From Synechococcus sp. CBW1002 (GTDB lineage Bacteria > Cyanobacteriota > Cyanobacteriia > PCC-6307 > Cyanobiaceae), in NCBI RefSeq assembly GCF_015840915.1, contig NZ_CP060398.1, forward strand, positions 3,472,001 through 3,536,000: DNA of 64,000 nucleotides, given 5' to 3'. Under the pieces are notes generated by a model. It searched no databases and had not been told where the DNA came from. It was given only the letters and a program-made list of their open reading frames with translations. Both the position numbers and the translations under genes were made by a program. Shown piece by piece: positions 6,871 to 61,224 of this stretch (position 1 is its first letter; each line of letters begins with the position of its first letter).

Positions 6871-6957
6871 GGGAGCCGGAGGAGCGACAAGCGGGCTGGG
6901 CGCGAGGCTACGCCGCGACCTTCTGGGCACGGATTCAGAGCTCCCGGACCAGGCTCC

Positions 6958-7995: not shown

Positions 7996-8039
7996 GCCTG
8001 GGAGGAGGGATCGAGGCCGGATCGTAGGGCTGGGCTCCG

Positions 8040-9194: not shown

Positions 9195-9230
9195 CCGCCT
9201 AGAGGGTGAGGCGCACGGGTCGGCATCCGA

Positions 9231-10324: not shown

Positions 10325-10345
10325 GGGGGAGGAGCGTTGTCCCCC

Positions 10346-10819: not shown

Positions 10820-10886
10820 CCGGGGGGTGGGGAGGCTGCGCGGGGGCGAGGGCGCAGAGTTGGATGGCGAGGCTTGATGGCCTGGC

Positions 10887-11900: not shown

Positions 11901-12084
11901 GCCCCAGTCGGCGGGAATTCCTGCCGATGGCGGCGTAGCCGCAGCCTGATCGGCCGGATGTGAACTGCCTTCACCCGAGCTGGTGGCGTGCCCAGACGTG
12001 GATCGGGCAGCGCTGATGTTGCGGCTGATGGCGGCTGGCACGGCGTTCCCGCAGCGTGGCGACCCTCGCAGGCCTTCTCCCAGT

Positions 12085-13317: not shown

Positions 13318-13430
13318 AAGAGCTGGGAATCGGCGCCGCCGATCCGATTCGCTACGAGGCGCGAACGGCCGGAGCGTAGATGGCCTGGCCGCCCTAGCTT
13401 CGCCAGCACCGATCGGGCGAGAGCTCCGGT

Positions 13431-14810: not shown

Positions 14811-14813
14811 GCC

Positions 14814-15593
14814 TCACTCCACCCGGAAGGTCACCCCCATGATCGCCGTGATGTCCTTGTCGATGGTGCGGGTGTCGTAGGAGCCACCGTCGCCGATGTC
14901 CGTGGAGTTGGGACGGGTGATCTGGAACAGGCCAGTGTCGGCGTTGGTGATCGCGCCGATGCCGCTGCCGGCCTCGCGCGCGATGGCAACGGCCCGCTGC
15001 CGCGCATCACGGGTGGCCTTGGCGAGCATGTCCACCCGCTTCTCCGCCAGCTTGGTGAAGGTGTAGGCCGGCTCCTCGATCGTGAGCGGGATGCCCTCGC
15101 CGATCAGGCTGCCAATGCCGGCCGAGACCCGCGCGATCCGGTCCACATCGGGGCTGGCGATGCGCAGGGTCTGGCGACTGGTCCAGCTCACCGATCGCAA
15201 CTCGCCGGTGCGGGGATCGCGCACCTCCTCCCGGTCCGAACGCACCGGATCAAGCGAGAGCTCCGCCGCCGCGATGCCCTGCTCCTGGAGCCAGGTGCGG
15301 CTGCGTTGCACCAGCGGCTGCAGGGCCTGCCACGACTCCTGCTGGCTGGCGCCGCCGGCGCTCACCACCACCATCCAATCGGCGAAGTCGCTGCGGATCC
15401 GTTCGGTGCTGGCGCCGGTCACGGTGATGGCGTCATTGGCGCGACGCAACCCCTTCACCGCCACGGCGCTGGCTGTGACCAGTCCAACCCCCAGCACCGC
15501 CATGGCGAACACCAGGGGCGGTGTGCGCCGCAGCGGACCCAGAAAGGCGGCAGCGCTGCCCCGATCCGGGGCGGGAGATGCGGGAGTGGACAT
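14814..15593 (-). CDS. SIMPL-domain (DUF541) membrane-anchored protein
   Basis: The protein has an N-terminal membrane helix (PPLVFAMAVLGVGLVTASAVAV) followed by a SIMPL domain from about residue 55 (AITVTGASTERIRSDFADW) to the C-terminus (DITAIMGVTFRVE). The start at 15593 is preceded by GAAGG with a 7-base spacer. An upstream ATG at 15620 would add 9 residues. The length of about 259 residues is usual for the periplasmic or outer-membrane DUF541 group, whose function is poorly defined. The terminal 60 codons reappear as a decayed copy at 48505-48685. Confidence 0.87.
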   Translation of the reverse strand: MSTPASPAPDRGSAAAFLGPLRRTPPLVFAMAVLGVGLVTASAVAVKGLRRANDAITVTGASTERIRSDFADWMVVVSAGGASQQESWQALQPLVQRSRTWLQEQGIAAAELSLDPVRSDREEVRDPRTGELRSVSWTSRQTLRIASPDVDRIARVSAGIGSLIGEGIPLTIEEPAYTFTKLAEKRVDMLAKATRDARQRAVAIAREAGSGIGAITNADTGLFQITRPNSTDIGDGGSYDTRTIDKDITAIMGVTFRVE

Positions 15594-42035: not shown

Positions 42036-43754
42036 ATGACGAAGATGCTGGCGGTCTCGTATCAGCGGGTGTCCACCGGGGAGCAGGTCGGCGAGGCTCG
42101 CTCCGGCCTCGATCGCCAGGCAGCAGCGTTCGCCGCCTTCTGCAGCCGCCACGGCCTGACGCCCGCGCCCGCCGCCGTGGTCGATGAGGGAGTGTCGGCG
42201 TTCAAGGGCCGCCACCGGCGCGAGGGTGGTCTGGCTGCCTTCATCGCGGCGGCCATGGCAGGCCACTGGCCGATGGGCACCATCCTCGTTGTCGAAGACC
42301 TCGATCGGTTCAGCCGTGAGGTGGCCAGCCGCCAGCAGGCGCTCCTGCTGGGTCTGTTCGACGCAGGGGTGGCGCTCGGGGTGTGCCGCGACGATCGGAT
42401 CGTGGATCGCGACATCTACGACACCAACTTGGCCGTGCGGCTGATGCTCACCATCCGGGCGGACGCCGCCCATGACTACAGCGCCAAGCTCTCGGAGCGG
42501 ATCGACGCCTCCTGGCGGCACCGCCGCGAGCGATCACTCCAGGGCGAGAAGATCGCCGGATTCAAGCCCTTCTGGTGTGGCTGGGATGGCGCCGACTACG
42601 TGCTCAACACCCACGCCGCCACCGTGCAGCGGATGACACAGCTTTGCCTCGACGGTCTCGGGCTTATCCGCATCGCTCAGGCGCTCAACGCTGAGGGGTT
42701 CCGCACTGCCAAGGGGCGCACCTGGGCATATGCCAACGTCCACAAGGTCATCAGCGACCCACGCATCGTCGGCGACCGCCCCTGGAGCGATGGCACGGTG
42801 GTGCCGGGTTACTTTCCAGCGGTGATCACCCGCGCCGAGTTCGACCGCTGCCACAAGTTGATCACATTGCGGAACAGCCGTAAGGGACAGGTTGGCAAGG
42901 GTGACGCGATCCGCAATCTCTTTCAAGGTCACTCCTACTGCACCTGCGGAAGATTGCTCAGCTACCAGTCACGCCGTAGCCGCAGCGGGGAGACCCTTTA
43001 CGAATACCTCACCTGCGTGGGAAAGCGCCACGGGCACTGTGACAGCCAGAACGTCAAGTACGACGAGGAGTTGATACTCCGCGCCCTAATGCGTGAACGC
43101 TGGAGACACTACTTCACCGCCTCAGATCGCCGGCATGAGGATCGCAAACTCCGCCAGAAAATCCTCGCGGCCGAGGCGGAGGTGGCCAAGCACCAGGCCC
43201 AGGCCGAGCGCTACCAGGCCCAGCTCGGCTCCCTGTTAGGCGAGGGTAGGCTCAGCGCCAAGGCAGCGAATCTGATCGCCGCGCAGGTGGACCAGGCCCT
43301 CGCCGCCGCCAGCGAGGCCCAGGAGGCGCTCCAGGCGCTCCAGCGGCGACAGGCAGAGATGGGTGCCCACCTCACCGGTCTGGAGCTGGAGGAGGCCATC
43401 CACGGGCAGGTGGAGAAGTTCATCGCCGAGAGCCTCCAGCAGCCGGAGGTGCGGCAGCGGTTCAATGCCTGGCTCCTGGCCTCGGGGGTGCGGATCACGG
43501 CCACCGATCCGGTGCGGAATAGCTGGGCCATGGAACTCGACGGCAGGCACCATCAGGCCTGGGCCCTGCGGTATCGCGGCCGGCCCGAAACGGTGGTGGA
43601 GGAGGGGCTCAGCTCGGTGGTCGCCGTGGCGCTGGCGGACAGCGGGAAGATTTCGCAGGAGGCGGTGCCAGATTGGGTGCGAGAGGCAGCTGACAGGAAA
43701 GCTCAGGACTTCTCCGCAAGGGTGGAGCGGCGGCTCAGCTCCGCTGAGGCTTGA
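42036..43754 (+). CDS. Large serine recombinase
   Basis: 572-residue site-specific recombinase. The N-terminal resolvase domain has the catalytic Ser13 in AVSYQRVSTGEQ and the conserved region VVEDLDRFSR at about residue 88. The recombinase domain follows with ALNAEGFRTAKGRTWAYANV. A zinc-ribbon region is visible with YCTCGRLLSYQ and a later CVGKRHGHC, and a coiled coil (about residues 370-460, AAEAEVAKHQAQAERYQAQL) completes the DNA-binding part. Enzymes of this type integrate phages and mobile elements. It stops 20 bases inside a convergent helix-turn-helix gene. I see no attachment-site repeat at either side. Confidence 0.9.
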   Translation: MTKMLAVSYQRVSTGEQVGEARSGLDRQAAAFAAFCSRHGLTPAPAAVVDEGVSAFKGRHRREGGLAAFIAAAMAGHWPMGTILVVEDLDRFSREVASRQQALLLGLFDAGVALGVCRDDRIVDRDIYDTNLAVRLMLTIRADAAHDYSAKLSERIDASWRHRRERSLQGEKIAGFKPFWCGWDGADYVLNTHAATVQRMTQLCLDGLGLIRIAQALNAEGFRTAKGRTWAYANVHKVISDPRIVGDRPWSDGTVVPGYFPAVITRAEFDRCHKLITLRNSRKGQVGKGDAIRNLFQGHSYCTCGRLLSYQSRRSRSGETLYEYLTCVGKRHGHCDSQNVKYDEELILRALMRERWRHYFTASDRRHEDRKLRQKILAAEAEVAKHQAQAERYQAQLGSLLGEGRLSAKAANLIAAQVDQALAAASEAQEALQALQRRQAEMGAHLTGLELEEAIHGQVEKFIAESLQQPEVRQRFNAWLLASGVRITATDPVRNSWAMELDGRHHQAWALRYRGRPETVVEEGLSSVVAVALADSGKISQEAVPDWVREAADRKAQDFSARVERRLSSAEA

Positions 43755-49081: not shown

Positions 49082-49229
49082 TCAAGAGTTCGCTCCGTTC
49101 ATCCCGAGCACCGGCGCCAATCCTCCAGGGGATTGCCAGTCACCAACCTGCCGTCCGTTCCTGCTGGGCAAGGTGGTCAATCCTGGAACCCTGAAGGGTT
49201 GATGAGCAGGAACGCTACCTGAATTTAAG

Positions 49230-49880
49230 ATGTCTTTCGGTGCTCGCCGCACGACCCATCTGTCGCGGCTTCTCATGGCTCAGCGCAAGAAGCTGGGCCT
49301 CAGGCCTGGTCAGGTCGCAGCCCTGCTCGGCGCCACGAACATCTCCAGAGTGGGCAGCCTGATCGGCTGCTTTGAGGTGGGAGAGCCGATCACGGATCAA
49401 TGGCTCGAGAAGCTGATCAATGCTCTCAAGCCTGATCCTGAGGAGCTGCGCCGCTGCCTGGAGCTCGATCAGGAGGAGGCCGAGCAGCAGTTGGAAGCGG
49501 ATCGTCGCGCCTGGGAGGCCTGGGCCGATGAACCGATGGATGCATACGTCTGGGTCCGCTACATGCCGGCGGTCTATGGCGTGAGGGACGTGCCCAAGGC
49601 CTTCTGCAATAGCCGTGAGCAAGCGGAGGGCTGGGCTTCTCGAGAGCTCAGGCGCTTACGGGCCAAGGGGTATCTGCAATGGACACGGCGCGAGCAGACC
49701 TGGTTTGACCAGTACGGCATCAACCCCCGCCGTCTTCCCGTCACGTTTGAGAATTCAAGACCGATCGGTGGGATGCAGGTCGGCCAATCACAACGACGGT
49801 TTTTGCTGGGATCCGATGGTCAGGTGATCACGGGCGGCTATGGGTTGTTGCAGGCGGGCCAATCCGGCTCGACGGCATGA
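49230..49880 (+). CDS. Helix-turn-helix domain protein (Xre-like)
   Basis: 216 residues. The N-terminus THLSRLLMAQRKKLGLRPGQ and VAALLGATNISRVGSLIGCF resembles the Xre/Cro helix-turn-helix, followed by a helical EELRRCLELDQEEAEQQLE. The second half (RYMPAVYGVRDVPKAFCNSR and WTRREQTWFDQYGINPRRLP) is a distinct domain that I do not recognise. A truncated paralogue lies at 47641-47775. It may regulate neighbouring genes or belong to a mobile element. The start at 49230 is the first ATG of the frame. Confidence 0.72.
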   Translation: MSFGARRTTHLSRLLMAQRKKLGLRPGQVAALLGATNISRVGSLIGCFEVGEPITDQWLEKLINALKPDPEELRRCLELDQEEAEQQLEADRRAWEAWADEPMDAYVWVRYMPAVYGVRDVPKAFCNSREQAEGWASRELRRLRAKGYLQWTRREQTWFDQYGINPRRLPVTFENSRPIGGMQVGQSQRRFLLGSDGQVITGGYGLLQAGQSGSTA

Positions 49881-49956: not shown

Positions 49957-50286
49957 TCAGCTGAACAGCTTGCGGATCGAGCTGATCAGCCAGAGGACCA
50001 GACCGATGAGGAACCACTGGTAGAACGCCACCACCAGCCAGATCGCGCCGGCCAGTACCGCAAGCCCGATCACGATGGCCAGGACGGCTCCGACCACCTC
50101 CCAGGGGTCAGGCCCGGAGGCATGGCCTTGGGATCGTGGTTGCTGGGGGCGATCAGCACTGCTGGTGACCCGTGCTCGACCGGGCGGAATAACGTGGTGC
50201 TGGCCGCTGCTGGCGCGGGAGGGAGTGGAGCGTGGGGCTGGCGGGGATTCAGAGCGGATGAACTCGCCTTTGTCGTTGAATGGCAT
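49957..50286 (-). CDS. Small membrane protein, last gene of the E2-JAB-E1 operon
   Basis: 109 residues. The N-terminal part (MPFNDKGEFIRSESPPAPRS to about residue 60) is hydrophilic, Pro/Ser/Arg-rich and probably disordered. The rest holds one or two membrane helices (VVGAVLAIVIGLAVLAGAIW and LVVAFYQWFLIGLVLWLIS) and ends IRKLFS. It starts 9 bases after the E1-like stop and shares strand and spacing with the operon, so it is probably co-transcribed. It might place the conjugation system at a membrane or be a target, but no function is known. Confidence 0.7.
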   Translation of the reverse strand: MPFNDKGEFIRSESPPAPRSTPSRASSGQHHVIPPGRARVTSSADRPQQPRSQGHASGPDPWEVVGAVLAIVIGLAVLAGAIWLVVAFYQWFLIGLVLWLISSIRKLFS

Positions 50287-50295
50287 GGCGACGCC

Positions 50296-51585
50296 TCAGT
50301 CCCTCCAGCGGCAGGGCGGGCACCCCTGGCCGTACCCCACCTGGATGGAGGTGGTGACCTGCAGTGGATGGGAGAAGATCTCGGCCCGCTCGCCGCCGAG
50401 ACGGGGATCGTTGCTGTTGCAGACCAACGTGAACTGGCTGAGCTTGCCGAGCAGCCTTGGCGCGTAGGAGGGGGTGTGGAGGTTCAGCAGATCGAGGGCG
50501 AGCTTGAGGCCGATCTGGGTGACGTAGGCGATGTCGATGCTGAGACCCGGTTGGAAGTCGAGCTTCTCGAGTGCTGCTTCTGTGGCATAAAAGCGTCGCT
50601 GCGACTCCTGCTTGCCGCTGAGAGCCTGAAGGCTCTGGCGTTCCTCTCCACCCATTTCTCCGGTCCCGTGGTTGCCCTGCCCTCCCTGGCTCAGTTCCTC
50701 GAAGGCGCAGCCGTAGCAGGGCATCGGCTCAGCCGGGTGGCTGTAGAAGATCTCACCCGCGAAGGCCCGCTCCCACAGGCCGATCGCCAGAAAGGGCAGT
50801 TCCAGCGCGGCGGCGAGGCGTGCGGCATGACGATCAGCCCTGCGACTGTCGGCGCAGGCCAGCATCAGCGTGATCGGCCCGCCCTGCCGTGCGGCTTCAG
50901 CACATTGCGCTTCTCCGGAAGGCTCCGCCCCACTCGCGAAGGCCTGCACCACGGCCGGATCGAGCCGCTCGATCGTCGTGGCCTGCACCTGCACCACCGC
51001 GTTGGGATTGATCTGATGGATCCGCTCGGCGGTGGCATCCACCTTGCGGCGGCCCACGTCAGCCAGGCCACAGGGATGGCGGCAGAGGTTCTCGAGCGAC
51101 AGCAGGTCGGGGTCGATCAGCAGGAAGCGCCCCACACCGCTGCGGGCCAGCTCCAGGGCCGCCAGGCCGCCCACCGAGCCGCAGCCGCAGATGATGACGC
51201 CCGCGTCCTGCAGGCGGCGCTCCTCCAGCAGGCACGTGTGTCTGGAAAACAGGGCGCTCTCCAGGTCGTAGGGCTGGGCTTGGCAGGGCTGGCCGTCGAG
51301 CCAGAAGCGCAGCAACTCGCCATCGCGGCGCACCACAAGCGATGGGGCGTCAGCGGCTGCCAGCTCGTCATTGCCAGTGGCCTGGGGTTCCAGCCAACCG
51401 AGCAGCACAGCTCGGGGTTGATGCCGCGGAGGTTGGTTGCCACAGCTGTCCAGGACCAGCGTCTGACCTGTGTCGGGGTGGGCGTAGCCGTAGAGGGGGC
51501 TGCCGTCCGGCCAGCCGGCCAGATCGGCGGGGAAAAGCACGGTCGTGCGCACGTGGGATTGGGGTGGTGAGGGGCGATCAGGCAT
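50296..51585 (-). CDS. ThiF/MoeB/E1-like adenylyltransferase
   Basis: 429 residues from MPDRPSPPQSHVRTTVLFPA. An N-terminal region of about 110 residues of unclear type comes first. The E1/ThiF Rossmann domain starts at about residue 115 (LLEERRLQDAGVIICGCGSV) with GCGSVGG (residues 134-140) and the conserved acidic LLIDPDLLSLENLCRH. Two CxxC pairs, PCYGC (about residue 306) and the C-terminal GCPPC, are the zinc site typical of ThiF/MoeB-type enzymes. Such enzymes adenylate the C-terminus of a ubiquitin-like or sulfur-carrier protein. It overlaps the JAB gene by 8 bases and belongs with E2-like and JAB partners. Confidence 0.85.
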   Translation of the reverse strand: MPDRPSPPQSHVRTTVLFPADLAGWPDGSPLYGYAHPDTGQTLVLDSCGNQPPRHQPRAVLLGWLEPQATGNDELAAADAPSLVVRRDGELLRFWLDGQPCQAQPYDLESALFSRHTCLLEERRLQDAGVIICGCGSVGGLAALELARSGVGRFLLIDPDLLSLENLCRHPCGLADVGRRKVDATAERIHQINPNAVVQVQATTIERLDPAVVQAFASGAEPSGEAQCAEAARQGGPITLMLACADSRRADRHAARLAAALELPFLAIGLWERAFAGEIFYSHPAEPMPCYGCAFEELSQGGQGNHGTGEMGGEERQSLQALSGKQESQRRFYATEAALEKLDFQPGLSIDIAYVTQIGLKLALDLLNLHTPSYAPRLLGKLSQFTLVCNSNDPRLGGERAEIFSHPLQVTTSIQVGYGQGCPPCRWRD

Positions 51586-52447
51586 GGCAGGGCTCTGTCC
51601 ACAACAGCGACAGCTGCTCGGGTTCCAAGCGGAGTCGTTCCCTGGATCCAGGAACCTGAACCCACAACTGGTCCTCGCAGGCCTGAAGAAGCAGGGCGCG
51701 TTGCTGCGGGCCCGAGCGCTCCACCAGGGCCAGGCAGAGATCGCTGCCGCAGGGCTGTAGGGCATAGGCAAGGCGATCCTGCGCCTCCAGCTGCTCCAGC
51801 AGCGGCTCCAACAGCGCCGTCAGCCCCGGGGCCAGTGGTTGTGGTGTGGAGCAGCGATCCACACATGCAGCGAGCAGGGTCTGCAGAACCCGTTGCTGGC
51901 GGTGGTGTTCCAGCGCGGCGGGGTGCAGGCAGCTGCGGTGGCGGGGTTCGAGCAGGGCCCTGGGGATGGCCTGATCCCCGCAGGAGATGGGCAGGCGCCG
52001 ATAGGCCAGGTCGGCCGGTACGTGATAGGCCGTGATCCGGAAATGGGGATCGAGGTTGACCAGGCAGGAGATGGCCCCGGCAGGTGACTGCTCGGCGTAG
52101 CGGCGGTTGGTGACGTCATCCTCCGCGGAGAAGCGATCAAAGCTGCCGGGATGGCGATGCCAGAGGCCGATCAGGCTGAGGGGCTCTTCATAAACACCGG
52201 CCATCTTGCGGGCCAGGTGGGTCACATAGGTGGTGTCGTATTCGAAGGTGGTGGGAGTGAAGCGGGCGGCCGGACCTGGATCGATCGCCTCAATCACATG
52301 CCAGCGACCCTGGCTGTGGTGACCGAGCAGGATGCCGCCGGTTTCGTTGGGATGCTGCGCGTGGGTTTCGGCCACGATCGCCGCATGGGCACGGCTCGAG
52401 AAGATGACACGCTCAGAGGTACGCGGCCAGAAGTGGAGGTTCAACAT
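51578..52447 (-). CDS. JAMM/JAB (Mov34/MPN) metallopeptidase
   Basis: 289 residues. The complete JAMM signature is seen: catalytic Glu35 in PNETGGILLG, and HxHP-x6-S-x2-D in WHRHPGSFDRFSAEDD (His97, His99, Ser107, Asp110). In eukaryotes and prokaryotic ubiquitin-like systems JAMM enzymes remove or process the modifier. A C-terminal half of about 120 residues without a known motif follows. It sits between the E2-like and E1-like genes on one strand, 4 bases after the E2-like stop and overlapping the E1 start by 8 bases, so all belong to one operon. Confidence 0.87.
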   Translation of the reverse strand: MLNLHFWPRTSERVIFSSRAHAAIVAETHAQHPNETGGILLGHHSQGRWHVIEAIDPGPAARFTPTTFEYDTTYVTHLARKMAGVYEEPLSLIGLWHRHPGSFDRFSAEDDVTNRRYAEQSPAGAISCLVNLDPHFRITAYHVPADLAYRRLPISCGDQAIPRALLEPRHRSCLHPAALEHHRQQRVLQTLLAACVDRCSTPQPLAPGLTALLEPLLEQLEAQDRLAYALQPCGSDLCLALVERSGPQQRALLLQACEDQLWVQVPGSRERLRLEPEQLSLLWTEPCHA

Positions 52448-52451
52448 CGGC

Positions 52452-53096
52452 TCAGATGTGATGTCCTCTGAACTGCTCGCTGCTCAGATCTCCGAGCATC
52501 CACAGCTCGAAGGCAGCAATCCACTTGGCGGCCCAGGCCAGGCTGCTGGCGGCGGTGCTGCTGCGGTTTCTGTCGCTGCGAAAGCTGCCGGCCTCCACGG
52601 TGCAGAGGCTCAACCCACCATCCGGATGGCGCAGGGTATGGGGGATCGATTCACCCAGCTGGGCCTCCAGCGTCAGCAGATCAGGCTCGATCGAGAAGAC
52701 GCTGATGGAGCCGCCATAGTCGTTGTTGTGGGGATGGTCGTGGTCGTAGACCAGCTGCAGATGCCAGATGCGCTCGCTGCCGGGCAGGCCGCTGGCCAGG
52801 GAGCCCAGCCAGGACATGCGGCCATCGGGCAGCCGATCGGGGCGGAACTGGGGGAAGAAGTGGTTCATTGCCTCCAACTCCCCCTGAAACAGCTGCGGAT
52901 CGCGCTCGTACCAGTAGAGAGAGGGGGCAGCAAGCTTGCCCTCAGGCACGGTGATGGCGGCACTGCCACTGCTGGCGTTGGAGCCCAGCGGCTGGATGGC
53001 CCCCTGCTGGGTGACCATCACGGATTCGCCGCGGAGCAGCTGGGCCGCCAGCTGGCGACGGCGTTCGGCGGCGGCGTCCTTGAGAGGGGGATTCAT
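52452..53096 (-). CDS. E2-like protein of a prokaryotic ubiquitin-like conjugation system
   Basis: 214 residues from MNPPLKDAAAERRRQLAAQL (53096). The core has HLQLVYDHDHPHNNDYGGSI, then IPHTLRHPDGGLSLC with Cys165, and the helix SSLAWAAKWIAAFELWMLGD. In prokaryotic E2 proteins of JAB/E1 operons a similar H-x-x-x-G-x-x-C-x core and terminal Trp-rich helix are found, so Cys165 is my candidate thioester Cys. The overall similarity is weak, and the position in the operon carries much of the argument. The frame extends to 53219 without need. It is divergent from the 57-residue gene at 53327. Confidence 0.65.
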   Translation of the reverse strand: MNPPLKDAAAERRRQLAAQLLRGESVMVTQQGAIQPLGSNASSGSAAITVPEGKLAAPSLYWYERDPQLFQGELEAMNHFFPQFRPDRLPDGRMSWLGSLASGLPGSERIWHLQLVYDHDHPHNNDYGGSISVFSIEPDLLTLEAQLGESIPHTLRHPDGGLSLCTVEAGSFRSDRNRSSTAASSLAWAAKWIAAFELWMLGDLSSEQFRGHHI

Positions 53097-53326
53097 GGCG
53101 GGTGGAATGGGCTGAGGCAATGGTCGGGGCCAGGTACTTCCACGCGAGCCTGCATTGTGCGAAAGACGGCCCAACCAACGCATCAGCGGCCACGGATGCG
53201 CCACTCGACTAAACAGCAACGACCACAGGGGTTGGCGTTCAACCGCTCGTCATTCGCAGTAGACGACTTCCATCATTGTCATGGTGGAGCAAGCTAAGCA
53301 GCAACATCAACCACAGACGCATCGGC

Positions 53327-53500
53327 ATGCCGAAAATCCACATCGAGGTGCAGAACCAGTTCGGACGTTGGCAGCACGTGCAGACGATGCACAACGAGGC
53401 CAATGCCTACCGCACGGCCCAGCAGCGTGCCCGATCGACCGACAAGCGCTACCGCCTGGTCGATGACGATGGGCGCCTTCTGGATGTGATCGATCCCTGA
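53327..53500 (+). CDS. 57-residue protein divergent from the E2-JAB-E1 operon
   Basis: Reads MPKIHIEVQNQFGRWQHVQT, then AQQRARSTDKRYRLVDDDGR and LLDVIDP. It is a paralogue of the gene at 48877. Its predicted order, strand (IHIEVQ), strand (RWQHVQTM), helix (NEANAYRTAQQRARST), strand (KRYRLVDD), strand (RLLDVID), is the order of a minimal beta-grasp fold, but its C-terminus lacks the usual diglycine, so a modifier role is speculation. It starts 230 bases from the E2-like ATG on the opposite strand. Confidence 0.78.
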   Translation: MPKIHIEVQNQFGRWQHVQTMHNEANAYRTAQQRARSTDKRYRLVDDDGRLLDVIDP

Positions 53501-53516: not shown

Positions 53517-55148
53517 TTAGTGGCCGGGCACATGCAGATGGCGGCCGCAATGGCCGATCACCACCTGGCCCAGATCGGCATCCCAGCAGAAGTGAATGCG
53601 AAGGGTTCGATTCTCGGAATCCTTGACGCCAATCTTGAGGTGCTGCCACATCTCGATGGTCTTGTCTCCATAGGAGAAGGTCCGCTCCCGCCTGGCCTGC
53701 TGATTGTTCTCGATCGTCTGCGACTCCCTGGGGGCATAACTGCTGGCCCCGAAGGCTTGCTGCCCCGCCACCAGGTCCGGAGCGCCCGCAAATTTCTGCT
53801 CGCGGAAGTTGGTGGCCAGCAGCCAGAGCAACTCGAACAGTCGATCGCCGTACTCGAAGCCCTTCGCTTCATCGGCCGAGCGCCAGGCGGAGTCGAGCAC
53901 CAGCAAATGTCCTGGACACAGCTCCTCGCTCACCAGCTCCAGGCACTGGCGGGGCCTCAGCCGTTCACTGCCGGCCAGGCGGCGCAGGCTCATCAGCAGA
54001 CGGTCGCTGATCTCCTGATCCTCAGCCTTCCCGTCGCCACCATCGGCTGCGGTCCATGGAGTGACAGCGAACTCACCGGAGCCACCAGAACCGCTCTGTT
54101 GCCTGAAGTAGTCGAGCTCAAGGGTGTTGACCTCCAGTTCGGTGCTGATCTGGGCGAGCTGATCGCTGAGGGTCTGGATCTCCGCCAGTGCCAGCTGCAG
54201 CTCCTGCTCCTTGAGATCGAGCTCCTGGCGCAGCTCCCCCTCCACGGACTGGGCCAACTCAATCGCCTGTTCGCCCTCCGCCAGTGCCTTCTGCGCTCGG
54301 CGCTCCAGAACGGATCTGCTGGTGTCGTACTCGCGCTGGAGACGGCGCTGTTCTGCTCGGCTGGTCTCCAGGCGCGTGCTGATCTCCTCCTGCTTCTCCT
54401 CCAGTTCCTTGAGCCGCTCCTGGCGTTCCCGCACGCGCGTGCTCTCGCTGGGGACCCCGAAGTGGGAGCGGATCAGCTGCTCCACCACGTCCGGATCCTC
54501 CGGTGCCCGCCCGCTGGCATCGGTGAGGCTCAGGTACCAGGGGTAATGGCGGCCATCCTGAGCCGGGTAGTAGCTGTAGCCGCACTTGCTGACATCGAAG
54601 CTGGCGGCCAGTAGCTCCTGAAGCTCGCGGAAGGCCCCTTCGCTGCAGCTGATCACCAGGCGCAGCTTGTCGCTGCCACTGGTGCGATCAACGTCCCAGG
54701 CGAAACTGCTCGAGACCCCCAGCTCCCGCAGGCGCCGGCTGGCCCTGGGGATCGGGATGGCGATCTGGAGGCGAAAGGCATCGCGCCGGGAGGTGGTTGC
54801 CAGCCCGGTGACCACAGCCTCCAGTCCATCCCTGGCCTCAGGCACCTCGGCAGCGATCAACGCAGCCATGTCCTTGGGGATGTAGCCGATCCACTGCTCC
54901 CTCCAGAAGACCTTGACGGCATTGGGATCCCATTGGTTCGTGGGCTCGTGCTGGAGGGTGAGCGAGTCACCGATGGTGATGCCAAGGGCCATCTTCTCGG
55001 CGGCATCTTCAAGCCTGTAAGCCAGGAACGTCTGCAGGATCTCGGCGCTGCTCTGCTGCTGGCGACGTTGGCGGGCCGCCTGCCGTTCGGCGCTGCCTGC
55101 GTCATCGAGGTGCTGCAGGCGCTGGAAGAGATTGCCTTTGGGCGCCAT
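53517..55148 (-). CDS. HIRAN-domain coiled-coil protein
   Basis: 543 residues. A HIRAN domain is at about residues 48-125 (LTLQHEPTNQWDPNAVKVFW, then QWIGYIPKDMAALIAAEV), which in other proteins recognises DNA 3' ends or stalled forks. A long coiled coil spans about residues 235-345 (LEEKQEEISTRLETSRAEQR, then many Glu/Gln/Leu heptads). The C-terminal domain of about 150 residues ends HFCWDADLGQVVIGHCGRHL and recurs in other uncharacterised bacterial proteins. It lies beside the E2-JAB-E1 operon but has a 17-base gap to the 57-residue gene and converges with it. A role in DNA-damage response or defence is inference. Confidence 0.75.
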   Translation of the reverse strand: MAPKGNLFQRLQHLDDAGSAERQAARQRRQQQSSAEILQTFLAYRLEDAAEKMALGITIGDSLTLQHEPTNQWDPNAVKVFWREQWIGYIPKDMAALIAAEVPEARDGLEAVVTGLATTSRRDAFRLQIAIPIPRASRRLRELGVSSSFAWDVDRTSGSDKLRLVISCSEGAFRELQELLAASFDVSKCGYSYYPAQDGRHYPWYLSLTDASGRAPEDPDVVEQLIRSHFGVPSESTRVRERQERLKELEEKQEEISTRLETSRAEQRRLQREYDTSRSVLERRAQKALAEGEQAIELAQSVEGELRQELDLKEQELQLALAEIQTLSDQLAQISTELEVNTLELDYFRQQSGSGGSGEFAVTPWTAADGGDGKAEDQEISDRLLMSLRRLAGSERLRPRQCLELVSEELCPGHLLVLDSAWRSADEAKGFEYGDRLFELLWLLATNFREQKFAGAPDLVAGQQAFGASSYAPRESQTIENNQQARRERTFSYGDKTIEMWQHLKIGVKDSENRTLRIHFCWDADLGQVVIGHCGRHLHVPGH

Positions 55149-55248: not shown

Positions 55249-56163
55249 CTACTCAACGAGACAAAACGCACTCCTGAGTTCATCAACGACTTGAAGACCG
55301 GTCTCGAATCCCTGGAATACGCTGCCAAGCAGTTGATCCCCAATGGAGTTAATTCGATGAGACTCCTCGACTTCATCCGTTGAGAGAGAAATGCTGTGTA
55401 CGAGGCCAGCGGGATCAGTGATCATAAGAGAGTGATCATTACTGACGCAAAACCCCCAATCCGGGAGGACTGGATGAATGCTGATGATTTCCAGGCTTGA
55501 ACTTGAGTTAGTACCTTCAAGCTCAAGAAACCAGCCGCTGCCAAATTCCAAGTCTGCAACGTAATCCTCAGCGCAGGAGAATAGCATCTCAAGTAGTTCA
55601 ATCAGATCGCAGGCTGATTCAGGGCGATCACCAGGACTGAGCGTGTAATAACCAGGAAATGGATCAACACCTGTGCAAATCTGGAATGTCTGCCGATGTT
55701 CATTGACCTTTCGATCGTTCTCTTTGCAACTCATCTTGGTGACAGGCTTCCAAGTAATCTCAATGTCCTCCTCCCAACGCCAGAGGATTTCTCCGCGCTG
55801 ACTGGATTCAAGATCAGCCAGGGCATCAACGAGCTGCTCCAGGAGATAAATCCGTGCTGGCTCTGGAGCTTCAGGTCCCATCCTCGCAAGCAATCTGATC
55901 AGTGCGGTCGTGCCACAGCGCTTCCACCAGGCGTCGTTTTCAAGCAATAGGAGCTTGAAGACCGGATTGTCGACGACCTGCTGGGAGCAGTCCTGAGCGA
56001 GATCCCAGAGGAGGTTCTCATCAACGTTGGGATTGGCAGCAATGACTGCGCGGATAGGCTGCCGAATACCCTTGCGCTTCAGACTACTGAGCTGGTGGAG
56101 CCTTGCTGGGGCGGTTGAAGGGTCAGCAGCGTCTGCAAGATAAATCCGAAGCCTGTTCTTCAT
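55249..56163 (-). CDS. LRV-repeat-type protein A
   Basis: 304 residues. The N-terminal LHQLSSLKRKG with IAANPNVDENLLWDLAQD is the leucine-rich-repeat-variant (LRV) pattern (A-x-NPN-x-x-LLWxLA). The rest is an acidic region with no recognised domain, ending LQVVDELRSAFCLVE. Base composition is lower in GC than the core genes, suggesting transfer. It has a paralogue 140 bases upstream at 56305-57288. The region from TCRQ to DWGFCVSNDHSLMITDPAGL also corresponds to GWEFDLDVDGFGEGVLTVID in the other copy. Confidence 0.7.
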   Translation of the reverse strand: MKNRLRIYLADAADPSTAPARLHQLSSLKRKGIRQPIRAVIAANPNVDENLLWDLAQDCSQQVVDNPVFKLLLLENDAWWKRCGTTALIRLLARMGPEAPEPARIYLLEQLVDALADLESSQRGEILWRWEEDIEITWKPVTKMSCKENDRKVNEHRQTFQICTGVDPFPGYYTLSPGDRPESACDLIELLEMLFSCAEDYVADLEFGSGWFLELEGTNSSSSLEIISIHPVLPDWGFCVSNDHSLMITDPAGLVHSISLSTDEVEESHRINSIGDQLLGSVFQGFETGLQVVDELRSAFCLVE

Positions 56164-56304
56164 GAAGAAAAAGAATTCAGTTGATTGCCAGAAAAATGCT
56201 GTTGATCTGGCAGACTAAGTCGAGCGACCTATGGTAATAATAAGCGATGTAGCCATCCCCCTCATTGGCCGATAAGATCTACATGGTGTTGCAGATTTAC
56301 GAAT

Positions 56305-57288
56305 CTACCTATGGGCTGCCTGGGCGGAGTCAGGATTAAGGACTAGGGCTTTAGGTAGCAGCTCATGCAGTTGATCGATGCTGAACTGGCCACCAAAAAG
56401 AAGCTCAGCCAGGTCTCTATCAAGCTCAGGATTCAGATAGTCTTGGTCAGCTTCGCTGCTGATGTCCCTATGGTGGCCAAATCCGGTTGGATCGATAACA
56501 GTAAGGACTCCTTCTCCAAATCCATCCACATCTAGATCAAATTCCCAGCCGGGGAGGTCTGGATCGACCTTGTCAATTTGCCAGTAGCCTTGGCCGCCTA
56601 AAGTTGAATTGTGTTCATAGTCCCAAGGAAGAGCAGTGAGGTCCATTTTGCCGGATTCTGAGAGCCCTAGTGCAATAAGGATCTTCAGCAGTGTGGCCGA
56701 GTCATGGGGTTTCCATGAGTTACCAATCTCCAGATCAAAGAAGCAGTCTTCAACAATAGAGCAGAATTCCAAGGTGAAAGAGTACTCCTCTTGCTCTTTG
56801 TCGTCAGCATTAGACCAGAAGGCGTCATCTTGCGCATCTTGATCGTCGGATCCAATGGATTCATCAGAGCTGTCAGCTTCACTCGTGTCCTGGGCGACCG
56901 CGATGAAGATGTGCCTGGTGAGACGTTGATGCCATTCCATGCGAAACGCCAGAGGTGAACTCTCACGCAGTTCGTCAGCGATGGAATGCACCAACTGATC
57001 ACGTCCGCGCTGGGGGGCATTCACACCCAGTTCAACGAGAAGTTTCAACAAGGCTGCACTCTCACAACGTTCCCACCAGGGATCAACGCCGAGATCAAAC
57101 AGGTCCATCTTTGGGTTCTTGATCACCGCTTCCGGATGATCCACAGCCAACTCCCAAAGCAGTTCCTCATCGACATTGGGGTTGGCCGCTATCAAGGGCC
57201 TGAGGATCTTGGTCTTTGCCAGCTGCCGCAGTCTCGCTGGGCTGGTATCGGGACTGCGGGCTTCTGTCGCTTCGTCGTTTGGGTCCAC
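56305..57288 (-). CDS. LRV-repeat-type protein B
   Basis: 327 residues and a paralogue of the previous gene. N-terminal PARLRQLAKTKIL with IAANPNVDEELLWELAVD is the LRV pattern, then NPKMDLFDLGVDPWWERC corresponds to NPVFKLLLLENDAWWKRC in the other copy. A very acidic linker (Ser/Asp/Glu, about residues 135-165) follows. The two proteins are full-length relatives with diverged middle parts, so an old tandem duplication is likely. Two proteins of this kind beside an LRV gene with MoxR and VWA partners (61225 onwards) suggest one functional group. The interval downstream (57289-57716) has no gene. Confidence 0.7.
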   Translation of the reverse strand: MDPNDEATEARSPDTSPARLRQLAKTKILRPLIAANPNVDEELLWELAVDHPEAVIKNPKMDLFDLGVDPWWERCESAALLKLLVELGVNAPQRGRDQLVHSIADELRESSPLAFRMEWHQRLTRHIFIAVAQDTSEADSSDESIGSDDQDAQDDAFWSNADDKEQEEYSFTLEFCSIVEDCFFDLEIGNSWKPHDSATLLKILIALGLSESGKMDLTALPWDYEHNSTLGGQGYWQIDKVDPDLPGWEFDLDVDGFGEGVLTVIDPTGFGHHRDISSEADQDYLNPELDRDLAELLFGGQFSIDQLHELLPKALVLNPDSAQAAHR

Positions 57289-57716
57289 GGCAAACGGAGA
57301 TTGAACAATCTAGCCTAAGGCTATGTGGTGTATAAGGAGAGAAGAATAGTAATTTTAAAGTCGCCGCGCGACCTCGTCAACCTCTGATGCTCAGAATGTT
57401 CACCTCCATTGCCCAAGGCTGCATGCGGATTTTAGCTTTGGCCTGGTCACGATCCGGTAAGGCGACCTCGCCGCTCCGAGTGTAGGAGCGATTGTTCTGA
57501 TCAATCCGGTGCACTGTGGCATGCAGCATGGGGATTGGCATTGGAGTGTGTTGAGTCTCGTCGGCATTAATGATGCATCCGATGTCGTCCAGAGTGGGAT
57601 CGGGTTCGAGGAAGAACGGACATTCCTTGCAGTGGGGAGTTACAACCTGCTAAGCCGGATAATGCGGCCAGCATTGATCTCGCCTAGTCTATGCGAGAGA
57701 ATGACAGGTATGCTCC
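57289..57716. other. Stretch without a convincing gene
   Basis: About 430 bases between the divergent start of LRV protein B and the 362-residue gene. It is GC-poor compared with the core. A plus-strand frame at 57509-57736 (IGFEEERTFLAVGSYNLLSR) looks like a short relic. Promoters for both flanking genes should be here, but I see no clear hexamer pair. Confidence 0.45.
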
Positions 57717-58805
57717 ATGGCAGAATCTTCCATTGATCTGCTGGCCTTGAATCGCGAGATCCTGCTCAATCCCAAAACGGCTGCCTGCAATCATCTGGTC
57801 GCCCTGCTTGAACTGGAGAAACCAGGCTTGGAGTTTTTGTGCCCAATGGCAAAGGCAATTTACCTTCTAGAAACCAACAGGAGTCATCTGGTTAATCCTA
57901 CTGAAGCCCTTTTGGGCTGCTTACTCGTTGACTACACGTTCTCAGGGGTACCTGGCACTGATGAATACGCCTCAGTTACAGAGCAAGTCCATCATGTGAT
58001 TGAAACCAGATTCGCCGGTCGTGATATCGTTCTCGGATTTGAGTCGACTGGTGGCATGCTTCATTATTCCAGCTACTGGAGTGACTATCTCCGCACTGTC
58101 TGGGCGAAGAAGTGGAACCTGGATCGAATCTCAAGACCACACGAGTTTATTGAGAATATATTCTGCATTCTAGGCGACGACGCTCGCCAAGCGACGCCAA
58201 GTGCCTATCCGTCAGATAAAGGAGAATTTCTGGGTAGCGTAAGCTATGTAATGACAAATATTAATGGCATAGACATCCAAGGCCCGGAGTATACAAATTC
58301 TGGTTGTGATGATGAGTGGGCAGGTCTCTCGGACAAATACAGCCAAAGGTATCCGGGTACTCGATGTGACTCCGATGGGCAGATGTGCTGGCTCCACTAC
58401 CTGGAAGAACGAGATGCCAAGAGACTTGGGATTTTGAGCGATGGCAACGAGGCAATCGGAGAAAATGATGACTATCCCGAATGGGTATCGAAAAAAGTCT
58501 CAGTAAAGGAACTCGAAGAAACATGGATTAGTCCTGATGAGCTACAGAGTAGCTACATGCGTGGCAATCTCGCCTTTGAAGAATCGACTATTGCCTGGTT
58601 GGCAATAGGCTGTGGTGAGGACTGGTATCCCGGGCGGCTCGAAGATGATGATCAGGGTCATAACAAGGAAGAAGACGGCGGGATCTTCGATCCCATGAGT
58701 CGACCTTTAATCGAAGTTGAAATTGAGAAAGAAGCAAAAGTGTTGCCAGATGAGCTGCTCACTCTTGCCCCATATCTTATCAAGCTACATCAAATGCTGA
58801 ATTAG
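57717..58805 (+). CDS. Hypothetical protein, 362 residues, acidic
   Basis: Begins MAESSIDLLALNREILLNPK and has no known domain. Residues about 50-140 are helical (AIYLLETNRSHLVNPTEALL). The C-terminal half contains CDDEWAGLSDKYSQRYPG, GILSDGNEAIGENDDYPEW, VKELEETWISPDELQSSYM and an acidic tail, LEDDDQGHNKEEDGG. The low GC and unusual codon use suggest acquisition from elsewhere. It lies in the accessory block, convergent with the metallopeptidase-VWA gene (17-base gap), and might be an effector or target in the same system. Unknown. Confidence 0.7.
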   Translation: MAESSIDLLALNREILLNPKTAACNHLVALLELEKPGLEFLCPMAKAIYLLETNRSHLVNPTEALLGCLLVDYTFSGVPGTDEYASVTEQVHHVIETRFAGRDIVLGFESTGGMLHYSSYWSDYLRTVWAKKWNLDRISRPHEFIENIFCILGDDARQATPSAYPSDKGEFLGSVSYVMTNINGIDIQGPEYTNSGCDDEWAGLSDKYSQRYPGTRCDSDGQMCWLHYLEERDAKRLGILSDGNEAIGENDDYPEWVSKKVSVKELEETWISPDELQSSYMRGNLAFEESTIAWLAIGCGEDWYPGRLEDDDQGHNKEEDGGIFDPMSRPLIEVEIEKEAKVLPDELLTLAPYLIKLHQMLN

Positions 58806-58821
58806 TTCTGTGCCTGCTGGA

Positions 58822-60096
58822 CTATTGGTGGATTCGAACAACCTCCCCCCAGGGAAACTCATCATTCTCCAGCCCCCCCGGCACCACCACCCAAAGGGTA
58901 GGCAGCTCTGGCTCCTGCTTGGGAAAATCACCGAAGCCATCCGTAAGATACACGCAGACGGCCCGTTTCTCACGGCTCCAGGTCTTCTGAACTTGCTTGA
59001 AGAACGGCCGGAAGTCGGTTCCGCCACCGCCTTCCGGTGCAGGCAGCTCACTGTCCTCCATCAGTTCATAGGGTCCATAGCAGCTGGCATCCGCGTACCA
59101 GAGCCAACAACGAAGCATCGGATAGGCCGAGAGGATGCCCCTCAGTTCGCCGAGAAACAGGCTGAGTTCTTCCTGGCCAACCGAACCGCTGGTGTCGATG
59201 CAACAGAACACCTCGACGCTTTCGCCCTCAAGGTGGTCGAGATACAGTCCCTGATGGATGAAGCGGCGGTCAAAACCGGCATAGTCGTTGGGGGTGTGCA
59301 CCAGATAGCGCCACAACTGGCTGCGCCAGTCCAACTGCGGATCGGCGATTTCATCCAGATGTCGCTGCAGGGCCGCCGGCAGATCCCCCTTGCCCTGGCT
59401 GCGCAGCAACACCTGTGCCTGTTGGATCGCCTGTTTCCAATGCGCCTCCAGCTCCTGCCGATCCGCCGGATCCCTCCCTGACTGCTGTTCGGCTGAGGAC
59501 TCACGTCCCTGTTTGTGGTGGTCCGCTGATTTGTCCTGCCCCGAATGGGCTGGCCTGCTCCGGCCTCTCTGACGACGGTGTGTTGGACTTCCCCCAGCAG
59601 GCTCGGATGTAGTCATCGGAGCTGCCAGCAAATCAGCCAGGGGTAATTGTGGCCGTTTGCGCTTCTGGCGCTTCTGGAGAAGCTCATAGATCTCCTCCAC
59701 ACTGTGATGCTCCAGGCGTACATCACGAATCGCGCCTTCAGGCAGTTGCAGTGAGCCCTCCGCCGCAATCATGCCATTGACGACCAGATCTGCTGCGATG
59801 TTGAACTGTTCGTGATCACGCATCCCTCGACGCAAGGGGTGCAACAAGGCCGCATGCAGCAGCTCATGCAAAAACAACCCATCGCGTTGGTTGGCAGGTA
59901 AGGCTGCGTAGGCCTGGGGATGGAACCACAGGGTGCGGCCATCGGTAGCCGCCAGGGCCACCGATTCGCTGAAGCGCACCTCCGCGAACATTGCCAGAGC
60001 CGCGAAAAATGGCGAGTGCATGCGCAGCCGCAGTCGCGTGGCGCTGACCAGTCTCTCCAGCTCAGAGATAGACGCCCCATTCGCGGTGGCAGTCAT
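58822..60096 (-). CDS. Putative metallopeptidase plus VWA-domain protein (DUF2201-like)
   Basis: 424 residues. The N-terminal half has a zinc-protease motif HELLH (residues 77-81, FLHELLHAALLHPLRRG) and a family motif VVNGMIAAEGSLQLPEGA. A long basic Arg/Gln/Ser-rich linker lies at about residues 165-215. The C-terminal half is a VWA domain with MIDAS-like DTSGSVG (in FCCIDTSGSVGQEELSLFL), and later GGGGTDFRPFF and YLTDGFGDFP. Metallopeptidase-VWA proteins pair with MoxR ATPases, as here. Its ATG overlaps the MoxR stop by 4 bases (ATGA), so the two are translationally coupled. Confidence 0.85.
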   Translation of the reverse strand: MTATANGASISELERLVSATRLRLRMHSPFFAALAMFAEVRFSESVALAATDGRTLWFHPQAYAALPANQRDGLFLHELLHAALLHPLRRGMRDHEQFNIAADLVVNGMIAAEGSLQLPEGAIRDVRLEHHSVEEIYELLQKRQKRKRPQLPLADLLAAPMTTSEPAGGSPTHRRQRGRSRPAHSGQDKSADHHKQGRESSAEQQSGRDPADRQELEAHWKQAIQQAQVLLRSQGKGDLPAALQRHLDEIADPQLDWRSQLWRYLVHTPNDYAGFDRRFIHQGLYLDHLEGESVEVFCCIDTSGSVGQEELSLFLGELRGILSAYPMLRCWLWYADASCYGPYELMEDSELPAPEGGGGTDFRPFFKQVQKTWSREKRAVCVYLTDGFGDFPKQEPELPTLWVVVPGGLENDEFPWGEVVRIHQ

Positions 60097-61121
60097 CGGC
60101 CCAGCAGTTCGCGGTAGTCCTTGAGGAAGGCCTGCAGAGCAGGCTCATCCGCCACCATCTTGGCCAGCACACCGACCTGATTCGTGCGGCGCATCTGAGC
60201 GACCAGGTCACTGGCAAACAGCTGCACCCATTCAGCTGTGGCCTTGGCCACCAGCCACTGGAAGGCCGCCAGGCCTTGCTCGGCAGTGGAAGCGCGCATG
60301 GTCAGGCCGATCGCGGTAGCCCAGCGCCCAGACGGTTCCTCAGGAAATTTGAGGCGTGCCCCCTTGCCGGTGAGAACCTTATCGAGATCGGGCAGCCTTG
60401 TATACACCTTGAGGTAGGCCCGGAACTCCGAAGCCGCCGCCTCACCGATGGCCGGATCCACATCCAGGCCGCCTTGATGCAAACAACTGGCCATCTCCCA
60501 GCTGCGTGGTGACGGCCAGGCTGGCTCCTTGGGATTGAGCTTATGCAGCAGGGTCGGGCGGAACGCCAGGAAGGCCAGCACCTGTTCATGCAGCCGGCGC
60601 TCCAGCGCATAGGCCTTGAAGCTGTCGAAATCGACGCCAACGCTGAGATGGAGGAAGCGATTGGCCAGGGGGGAGGGCATCTCGAACACCGAGGCGCGAT
60701 CCTCCTTGCGATTACCCGCTGCCCAGATGAACCAGCCCTCCGGCACCCGGTAACTGCCCACCTGGCGATCGAGGATCAGCTGCTGGGCCACACCCTGCAT
60801 CGCAGGGGGTGCCATGTTTAGCTCATCGAGGAACAGGATACCTTTTCCGGAGCGCGGCAAAAATTCTGGGGGGAACCAAGTGGACGTACCCAGGCTTTCG
60901 CCATCCGCCGGCGGAACGGCCACGGGCAGCCCTCTCAGGTCTGTTGGGGCCAGCTGACTGAGGCGTACATCGATGAAGTCCAGCCCAGCAGCCTCTGCCA
61001 CCTGCGCCACGATGCTGGATTTGCCGATTCCTGGAGGGCCCCAGATCATCGTGCTGATCCTGATGTTGCCCACCACCAGCTGGTCGAGGTAACGGAGTAG
61101 CTGGGAGGGTTTGAGTGTCAT
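60093..61121 (-). CDS. MoxR-type AAA+ ATPase
   Basis: 342 residues from MTLKPSQLLRYLDQLVVGNI at 61121. Walker A is GPPGIGKSSIVAQ at about residue 28 and Walker B is ILFLDELNMAPPAMQGV at about residue 105. Sensor-type ANRFLHLSVGVDFDSF follows, with an AAA lid (SPRSWEMASCLHQGGLDVDP). MoxR ATPases work as chaperone-like partners of VWA proteins in metal-centre insertion or in regulated protein assembly. The frame reaches 61583, but that start is antisense to the LRV gene and not credible. It lies between the LRV gene upstream and the metallopeptidase-VWA gene downstream. Confidence 0.9.
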   Translation of the reverse strand: MTLKPSQLLRYLDQLVVGNIRISTMIWGPPGIGKSSIVAQVAEAAGLDFIDVRLSQLAPTDLRGLPVAVPPADGESLGTSTWFPPEFLPRSGKGILFLDELNMAPPAMQGVAQQLILDRQVGSYRVPEGWFIWAAGNRKEDRASVFEMPSPLANRFLHLSVGVDFDSFKAYALERRLHEQVLAFLAFRPTLLHKLNPKEPAWPSPRSWEMASCLHQGGLDVDPAIGEAAASEFRAYLKVYTRLPDLDKVLTGKGARLKFPEEPSGRWATAIGLTMRASTAEQGLAAFQWLVAKATAEWVQLFASDLVAQMRRTNQVGVLAKMVADEPALQAFLKDYRELLGR

Positions 61122-61224
61122 GGATGACGGGGTAGTGAGAATGCTGTTACCAGTGCTCCTCCGCTCCTTACGGATGTGACACGAGCAGTTAACAGCAGAG
61201 GCAGGAGGGGACTTGCAGGGCCAC

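What the first reader, a model, noticed from the sequence alone, without database searches (positions are those of the whole stretch)
49957..53096. E2-JAB-E1-membrane protein operon without a recognisable modifier
Four same-strand genes with gaps of -8 to +9 bases encode an E2-like protein (candidate Cys165), a complete JAMM peptidase, a ThiF/E1 enzyme with two CxxC pairs, and a small C-terminally membrane-anchored protein. Known prokaryotic ubiquitin-like systems (for example BIL-type and PRTRC-type clusters) have a ubiquitin-like protein next to these enzymes. None is recognisable here, and the terminal membrane gene is not part of the standard sets I know. The operon may be a variant conjugation system, possibly in phage defence or protein quality control.
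Basis: partly seen in the sequence, partly recalled or inferred. Interest (0 to 1): 0.75.

Follow-up and report, generated by a model that had tools for sequence, protein, structure and literature searches.

The report
Conjugation operon with possible built-in modifier
A rare four-gene cassette in picocyanobacteria looks like a bacterial protein-tagging machine related to enzymes of a known phage-defence system, and comparison with other bacteria suggests that its seemingly missing tag is fused to the front of one of its enzymes.

Summary
The operon is real. E2 (52452-53096), JAMM peptidase, ThiF-type E1 and a membrane protein lie in one tight same-strand run, and the order recurs in six of six complete loci found in the family. 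The E2 body has the E2 fold; a CBASS E2 heads the structural matches, tied with Tsg101 domains, and Cys165 aligns with the CBASS E2 cysteine. 'No recognisable modifier' needs revising. The cyanobacterial E2s carry a ~55-residue N-terminal module ending in GKLA. In two distant loci (L013, L018) that module is a separate small gene ending ...APEGKLA-stop, directly before E2. A C-terminal Gly or Ala is what CBASS E1-E2 enzymes need on the protein they conjugate. The membrane protein keeps a near-invariant start, MPFN[DEH]KGEFIR, on a divergent chain. I propose that the module is the conjugated peptide, freed by JAB, and the membrane protein its target. This is inferred, not shown. Against it: no beta-grasp fold is predicted for the module, and the E1 lacks a crossover-loop cysteine. 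Defence rests on neighbourhood only. New variant of a known kind.

The parts
52452..53096 (-). E2-like gene, 214 aa; body from residue 57 has the E2 fold; candidate catalytic Cys165 (codon 52602-52604)
   Evidence: PADLOC E2 2.7e-10; model and VIA match; Cys aligned with CBASS E2s
52929..53096 (-). N-terminal module of the E2 gene (residues 1-56, ending GKLA): candidate modifier
   Evidence: Separate 63-65 aa gene before E2 in L013 and L018
51578..52447 (-). JAB/JAMM peptidase, 289 aa, complete metal site
   Evidence: Prok-JAB 9.7e-14; alignment of 10
50296..51585 (-). Minimal ThiF/UBA5-like E1, 429 aa, two CxxC pairs, no crossover-loop cysteine
   Evidence: ThiF 9.7e-23; best PDB sequence match UBA5 1.1e-17; alignment
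49957..50286 (-). Small membrane protein, 109 aa; hydrophobic C-terminal region; candidate target
   Evidence: Present in six of six complete loci; hydropathy
50254..50286 (-). Near-invariant N-terminal peptide MPFNDKGEFIR with Lys6
   Evidence: MPFN[DEH]KGEFIR in 6 of 6, with synonymous codon changes
53517..55148 (-). HIRAN-domain protein, 543 aa, frequent neighbour, possible partner
   Evidence: HIRAN 4.5e-10; in 7 of the 9 genomes with an E2 match
49230..49880 (+). HTH-like protein gene, convergent neighbour; membership uncertain
   Evidence: HTH_31 at 0.025, below cut-off; homologues beside the operon in L049, L051, L052, not in L050 or L053

Best explanation
A reversible protein-conjugation cassette that works like CBASS Cap2/Cap3 but with separate E1, E2 and JAB genes. 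Proposed steps: (1) JAB cleaves the E2 gene product after GKLA and frees a ~55-residue peptide (relatives make it as its own 63-65 aa protein). (2) The minimal E1 adenylates its C-terminal alanine. (3) The peptide passes to Cys165 of the E2, perhaps directly from the adenylate. (4) The E2 attaches it to a lysine, most likely Lys6 in the near-invariant N-terminal peptide of the membrane protein. (5) JAB removes it again. The likely purpose is a membrane-linked switch in an anti-phage or other conflict response. Shown by computation: gene order, domain identities, E2 fold, JAMM residues, the module boundary, the conserved membrane peptide. Inferred: every catalytic step, the target and the function.
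For: Operon and order in six of six complete loci. E2 fold with a CBASS E2 at the head of the matches and a shared cysteine. Complete JAMM site in 10 of 10. Module encoded as a separate gene ending ...APEGKLA-stop before E2 in L013 and L018, each E2 with its own ribosome-binding site and with diverged synonymous sites. Junction VP(E/Q)GKLA kept in six complete fused genes and in the part of L054 that is held. In L013 the order small gene-E2-JAB-E1 matches BilABCD. C-terminal Gly/Ala rule of CBASS, and conjugation of a C-terminal Ala to lysines of the membrane-associated PspA with removal by Cap3. MPFN[DEH]KGEFIR in 6 of 6. No other gene of the set has a consistent Gly/Ala end: the membrane protein ends in S, Q, R, R, R, S, HIRAN in H in 6 of 6, the HTH protein in A, G, G, P.
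Against: No beta-grasp is predicted for the module (low confidence, few sequences). None of the seven aligned E1s of the group has a cysteine in the crossover region. JAB cleavage at GKLA-A is not shown. Only two split loci are known. The fused module is less conserved than the E2 body (mean pairwise identity 0.735 against 0.805). The L013 set has no protein with the MPFN motif among the ORFs I read.
Confidence: 0.38

Rival explanations
1. The N-terminal module is a structural or regulatory part of the E2 that acts non-covalently, fused or split; the conjugated protein is encoded elsewhere or comes from an invader.
For: The module models as a helix and two short strands at low confidence. Fission or fusion of an E2 domain would give the same gene pattern.
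Against: The split falls exactly after GKLA, a residue type that CBASS E1-E2 enzymes accept, and the residues before it stay conserved in the fused genes.
Confidence: 0.35
2. The HIRAN protein (or the convergent HTH protein) is the partner or cargo, and the cassette modifies a DNA-end-sensing complex.
For: HIRAN in 7 of 9 E2 genomes against 10 of 391 others; Mre11/Rad50-like genes precede it in L052. In the window and L050 it stands without Rad50/Mre11, next to the cassette.
Against: HIRAN occurs without E2 in 10 genomes and beside Rad50 in 5 of the 7 further HIRAN loci that I fetched; none was found in G592. HIRAN ends in His in 6 of 6 and HTH ends vary.
Confidence: 0.12
3. Not protein conjugation: the E1 works like MoeB/ThiF in sulfur or small-molecule chemistry.
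For: No crossover-loop cysteine in the E1; ThiF and MoeB are among its PDB matches.
Against: The E2 fold with a conserved cysteine and the JAMM enzyme. No sulfur-metabolism gene among the window proteins that I scanned.
Confidence: 0.08
4. The membrane protein itself is activated through its C-terminus.
For: It is the fourth gene of six of six complete loci.
Against: Its last residues vary (S, Q, R, R, R, S) and follow a hydrophobic region.
Confidence: 0.04

Closest known systems
CBASS type II Cap2 (E2-E1) and Cap3 (JAB), including E2-only CBASS operons
   Same: E2 fold and cysteine, JAB and E1 family matches in PADLOC, Ala at the end of the candidate cargo, a modifier that is not a recognisable ubiquitin
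   Different: No nucleotidyltransferase or CBASS effector found among the window proteins scanned; separate E1 and E2; no crossover-loop cysteine; own small module and membrane protein
BilABCD
   Same: Order E2-JAB-E1, and in L013 small gene-E2-JAB-E1
   Different: BilA is a double ubiquitin-like protein and BilD has a Cys domain (review passages); the CEHH spacing of BilB is absent here
Ubl-E2 fusion of the FtsH ternary systems (Kaur et al. 2020, PMC7159879, passages)
   Same: Modifier-E2 fusion with JAB and E1; the authors suggest that JAB releases the Ubl
   Different: There a recognised Ubl with an EAD1 domain and a RING-type E3; here a short module without recognised fold and no E3 found
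UFM1 pathway (UBA5, UFC1)
   Same: Best PDB sequence matches of the E1 are UBA5 chains; UFC1 structures are among the E2 fold matches
   Different: No beta-grasp modifier recognised; no cysteine at the place of the UBA5 crossover-loop Cys250
6A-MBL anti-phage system
   Same: Its NCBIfam model NF058523 is the best NCBIfam match of JAB (59 bits) and a match of E1 (58 bits)
   Different: Scores far below the cut-off of 320; there one E2-E1-JAB polypeptide with a metallo-beta-lactamase, here separate genes and none found

Membership tests
CBASS type II | Nucleotidyltransferase (cGAS-like) gene in the operon | tested here: not met
   None among the 17 window proteins scanned (PADLOC on 7 of them)
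CBASS type II | E2 domain with catalytic cysteine | tested here: met
   Fold match 8yjy_B Z 8.9, tied with Tsg101 UEV; cysteine aligned
CBASS type II | E1 catalytic cysteine in the crossover region | tested here: not met
   Absent in seven of seven aligned E1s of this group; the Cap2 position is recalled, not looked up
Bil (BilABCD) | Recognisable ubiquitin-like BilA | tested here: inconclusive
   No Pfam hit in the E2 gene product and no other small same-strand gene in the operon; module fold unresolved
Bil (BilABCD) | CEHH motif of BilB (Cys138, Glu144, His146, His151) | tested here: not met
   Residues at +6/+8/+13 from Cys165 in the window are S/R/R; His at +13 only in five of six cyanobacterial rows (motif)
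PRTRC | PRTRC ThiF family (TIGR03736) | tested here: not met
   12.2 bits against a cut-off of 144.75
6A-MBL | E2-E1-JAB in one polypeptide next to a metallo-beta-lactamase | tested here: not met
   Separate genes; no such lactamase among the window proteins scanned
Reversible E1-E2-JAB protein conjugation (generic) | E1, E2 and JAMM enzymes encoded together | tested here: met
Reversible E1-E2-JAB protein conjugation (generic) | Thioester transfer and isopeptide formation on a lysine | not testable with these tools
   Needs biochemistry

The most novel reading that the evidence does not exclude
A bacterial conjugation pathway whose modifier is a 55-65 residue, non-beta-grasp peptide ending Gly-Lys-Leu-Ala, made either as a separate gene or as the detachable N-terminus of its own E2, and put on a conserved N-terminal lysine of a small membrane protein. 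In other bacteria the same enzymes, or the JAB alone, are built into FtsK/WXG-like (type VII-like) gene sets, so the modification may gate a membrane or secretion complex.
Probability: 0.27. Interest if true: 0.82.

Novelty: new variant of a known kind. Interest (0 to 1): 0.6.

Why it matters
If the module is the conjugated peptide, ubiquitin-type chemistry in bacteria would extend to another class of cargo besides beta-grasp proteins and cGAS-like cyclases. An E2 carrying its own modifier would be a simple, testable model of how such pathways assemble. The conserved membrane peptide is a defined candidate substrate. The L013 locus and the JAB-only loci point to a link between ubiquitin-like enzymes and FtsK/WXG-type membrane machines.

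Tried and rejected
Other modifier candidates. The only other small gene between HIRAN and E2 that I considered (53276-53500, + strand) is on the opposite strand and matched only L049 and L052 among the eight other family loci; rejected. Six E2-bearing genomes were searched for an unfused copy of the module: the best hit in each is the E2 gene itself, and further hits have E = 0.33 to 0.76.

Searches that led nowhere. tblastn with the window E2 found nothing in plasmids or phages; the L018 E2 nothing in phages; the small protein nothing in plasmids. The PDB sequence search with the E2 profile gave one chance-level hit. Foldseek alone listed E2-fold proteins at E >= 0.016. The viral scans gave L013 (fetched again as L016, L017, L019, L020, L023, L024) and L018 as the only relatives. 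The FtsK protein of G183 had no match in G000, G001 or G451, without a positive control in that call. The papers on Bil and two by Burroughs and colleagues are not held. I know Bub here only from PDB titles.

Results against my reading. No beta-grasp predicted. No E1 crossover cysteine. The HIRAN link may be a shared hotspot: HIRAN also occurs in 10 genomes without an E2 match, beside Rad50-like genes in 5 of the 7 further HIRAN loci fetched (L069 and L071 had none). E2 was found in 9 of 400 family genomes, of which L055 and L056 look decayed and L054 is cut by a contig end.
Full report
OBSERVATION. The four genes are present as described: E2 52452-53096, JAB 51578-52447, E1 50296-51585 and a membrane protein 49957-50286, all on the minus strand and nearly touching. 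Pfam gives Prok-JAB 9.7e-14 and ThiF 9.7e-23. The E2 has no Pfam or NCBIfam hit but matches seven PADLOC 'E2' models, best 2.7e-10.

DISTRIBUTION. The cassette is rare. E2 was found in 1 of 99 genomes (own and relatives) and in 9 of 400 genomes of the family, own genome included. In the phylum sample of 386 genomes, E1 was found in the own genome only at E <= 1e-15, and JAB in the own genome plus two others at E <= 1e-12. Six of the nine E2 genomes have a complete locus: the window, L049, L050, L051 (the Vulcanococcus sp. Clear-D1 contig, first met as L002), L052 and L053. All six keep the order E2-JAB-E1-membrane protein. L054 is cut by a contig end; L055 has a shortened, altered E2, and JAB and E1 were not matched in the 9 kb held; L056 holds fragments.

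E2. An AlphaFold2 model from six rows (mean pLDDT 72.3, pTM 0.63) shows a helix, four strands, an active-site loop and a helix. Foldseek lists E2 and UEV proteins, none with E <= 0.001. VIA-align, a second look at Foldseek's list, ranks the CBASS CdnG-E2 of Serratia marcescens first (8yjy_B, Z 8.9, rmsd 3.4, 127 aligned, 22% identity), tied within one Z unit with Tsg101 UEV domains; UFC1 follows, Cap2 has Z 7.2 and BubCD 6.6. Plasmid relatives of the L013 E2 are weak (four records, E 0.02-0.09). Three of the four lie between a nucleotidyltransferase and a CBASS phospholipase gene; the fourth lies unannotated between genes with other annotation. Cys165 and an upstream PH pair are shared with the three CBASS E2s.

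E1 AND JAB. The E1 is a minimal ThiF-type enzyme. Its best PDB sequence matches are UBA5 chains (1.1e-17), then ThiF, MoeB and others, with Cap2 at 1.3e-10. Two CxxC pairs align with those of other bacterial E1s, and no cysteine occupies the crossover region in seven of seven E1s of this group. That the crossover cysteine of L005 corresponds to the catalytic one of Cap2 is from memory. JAB keeps E35, H97, H99, S107 and D110 in ten of ten aligned sequences.

THE MODULE. L013 (IMGVR_UViG_3300022589_001211) and L018 (IMGVR_UViG_2854222423_000004) hold E2s that start where the cyanobacterial E2 body starts. Directly before them stands a separate small gene of 63 and 65 aa, homologous to residues 1-56 of the window's E2 product (41% identity to L018), ending ...LKAPEGKLA-stop. 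The stop codons overlap good ribosome-binding sites (TAAGGAGG, TAGGAGG). The two loci differ at 75% (small gene) and 86% (E2) of synonymous sites, so the split is a shared feature of two diverged lineages and not a reading error. Six complete fused genes read ...VP(E/Q)GKLAA(P/R)SLYWYERD; L054 agrees as far as held, while the decayed L055 reads VPEDQLAAPS. In L013 the order is small gene-E2-JAB-E1, like BilABCD, where BilA is the modifier, BilB the E2, BilC the JAB enzyme and BilD the E1 (review PMC11354881, passages). L018 ends with its E2. A free C-terminal alanine fits the rule of type II CBASS: Jenson et al. report Gly or Ala at the C-terminus of cGAS in operons with full Cap2 and Cap3, and no such conservation in other architectures (PMC10097602, passages). 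The B. cereus cyclase is joined through its C-terminal Ala to lysines of PspA and released without scar by Cap3 (PMC11153139, passages). The module alone gives a poor model (mean pLDDT 56.9, pTM 0.29, four sequences), so its fold is open; no beta-grasp was predicted. A Ubl fused to an E2, to be released by JAB, was proposed for other systems (PMC7159879, passages). The fused module is somewhat less conserved than the E2 body (0.735 against 0.805 mean pairwise identity).

THE MEMBRANE PROTEIN. In six of six loci it begins MPFN[DEH]KGEFIR, with synonymous codon changes, followed by a linker of varying length and a hydrophobic C-terminal region. A degenerate DNA pattern for this start matched once in 60 genomes, in this operon; those 60 did not include the other E2-bearing genomes, and the pattern would miss the His variant of L053. 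Lys6 is the only lysine of the motif. The C-terminus varies, which argues against it being the activated protein.

SURROUNDINGS. A HIRAN protein lies beside E2 (53517-55148). It was found in 17 of 400 family genomes (E <= 1e-20). If the two family draws hold the same 400 genomes, as the shared handles suggest, 7 of 9 E2 genomes have it against 10 of 391 others (Fisher p = 2e-9, ignoring kinship). In those seven it lies about 0.1 to 6 kb from the operon. But among seven further HIRAN loci that I fetched, five have Rad50-like matches (L070, L072-L075) and two have none (L069, L071); Mre11-like matches occur in L070, L072, L074 and L075. In the window and in L050 HIRAN stands without them, next to the cassette. 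In L053 the operon sits between two stretches of one repeat (12 and 14 exact copies of a 28-mer), with Cmr2/Cas10-type and Cmr3-type genes near by. An integron integrase lies near the operon in L051, with homologous pieces in L049 and L052. These contexts fit a defence or mobile island; no defence was tested.

DISTANT CONTEXTS. In L013 the enzymes are followed by a 74-aa gene, an FtsK/SpoIIIE ATPase (8.3e-23), a WXG100-like protein (16.1 bits, below the cut-off of 27.3), a 224-aa gene and a 173-aa gene with a hydrophobic stretch (seen by eye). JABs 47-48% identical to the window's stand beside WD40-repeat proteins on two Gloeothece plasmids, with no E1 or E2 annotated in the 12 kb stretches (L003, L004). 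In G183 (L031) such a JAB stands with an FtsK ATPase (9.7e-31), two WXG100-like proteins (15.1 and 14.3 bits, below cut-off) and a WD40-repeat protein; G309 has a similar JAB neighbourhood in the 3.5 kb read. So this JAB family occurs with FtsK/WXG-like genes in two kinds of locus. I found no paper describing such a set with E1, E2 and JAB (searches, in a library that lacks most subscription journals).

VERDICT. An authentic, rare conjugation cassette that works, I propose, like Cap2/Cap3, and that fails membership of CBASS, Bil, PRTRC and 6A-MBL on at least one tested feature each. The main addition is a concrete modifier candidate inside the E2 gene and a concrete target peptide; both are hypotheses.

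Noticed in passing
window 49086-49215 (+): A 130-bp stretch before the HTH-like gene is 96-97% identical to L049 and L051 (89% over 172 bp in L052), while that gene's protein is only ~58-62% identical: possibly a regulatory RNA. Rfam SAM-I-IV matches weakly, 33.4 bits against a gathering score of 41.1.
   Followed up: partly
L031 (G183) 5582-14892: FtsK ATPase, two WXG100-like proteins (below cut-off), a coiled-coil-like protein (by eye), a JAB and a WD40-repeat protein in one run.
   Followed up: partly
L013 4125-12123: Small gene-E2-JAB-E1 followed by an FtsK/SpoIIIE ATPase and a WXG100-like protein (below cut-off), on a viral-contig record.
   Followed up: partly
L052 201-5846; also L070, L072-L075: Metallophosphatase (Mre11-like), Rad50-like ATPase and HIRAN protein in a row in L052; Rad50-like matches beside HIRAN in the others.
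   Followed up: partly
L053 4508-5734 and 13081-14363: 26 exact copies of a 28-mer on both sides of the conjugation operon, with Cmr2- and Cmr3-type genes near by: CRISPR context.
   Followed up: partly
window 55249-63981: LRV-repeat proteins, a DUF2201 metallopeptidase/VWA protein and an AAA ATPase, reminiscent of vWA-MoxR conflict systems.
   Followed up: no
window 42036-43754 (+): Large serine recombinase about 6 kb from the cassette; may mark a mobile region.
   Followed up: no
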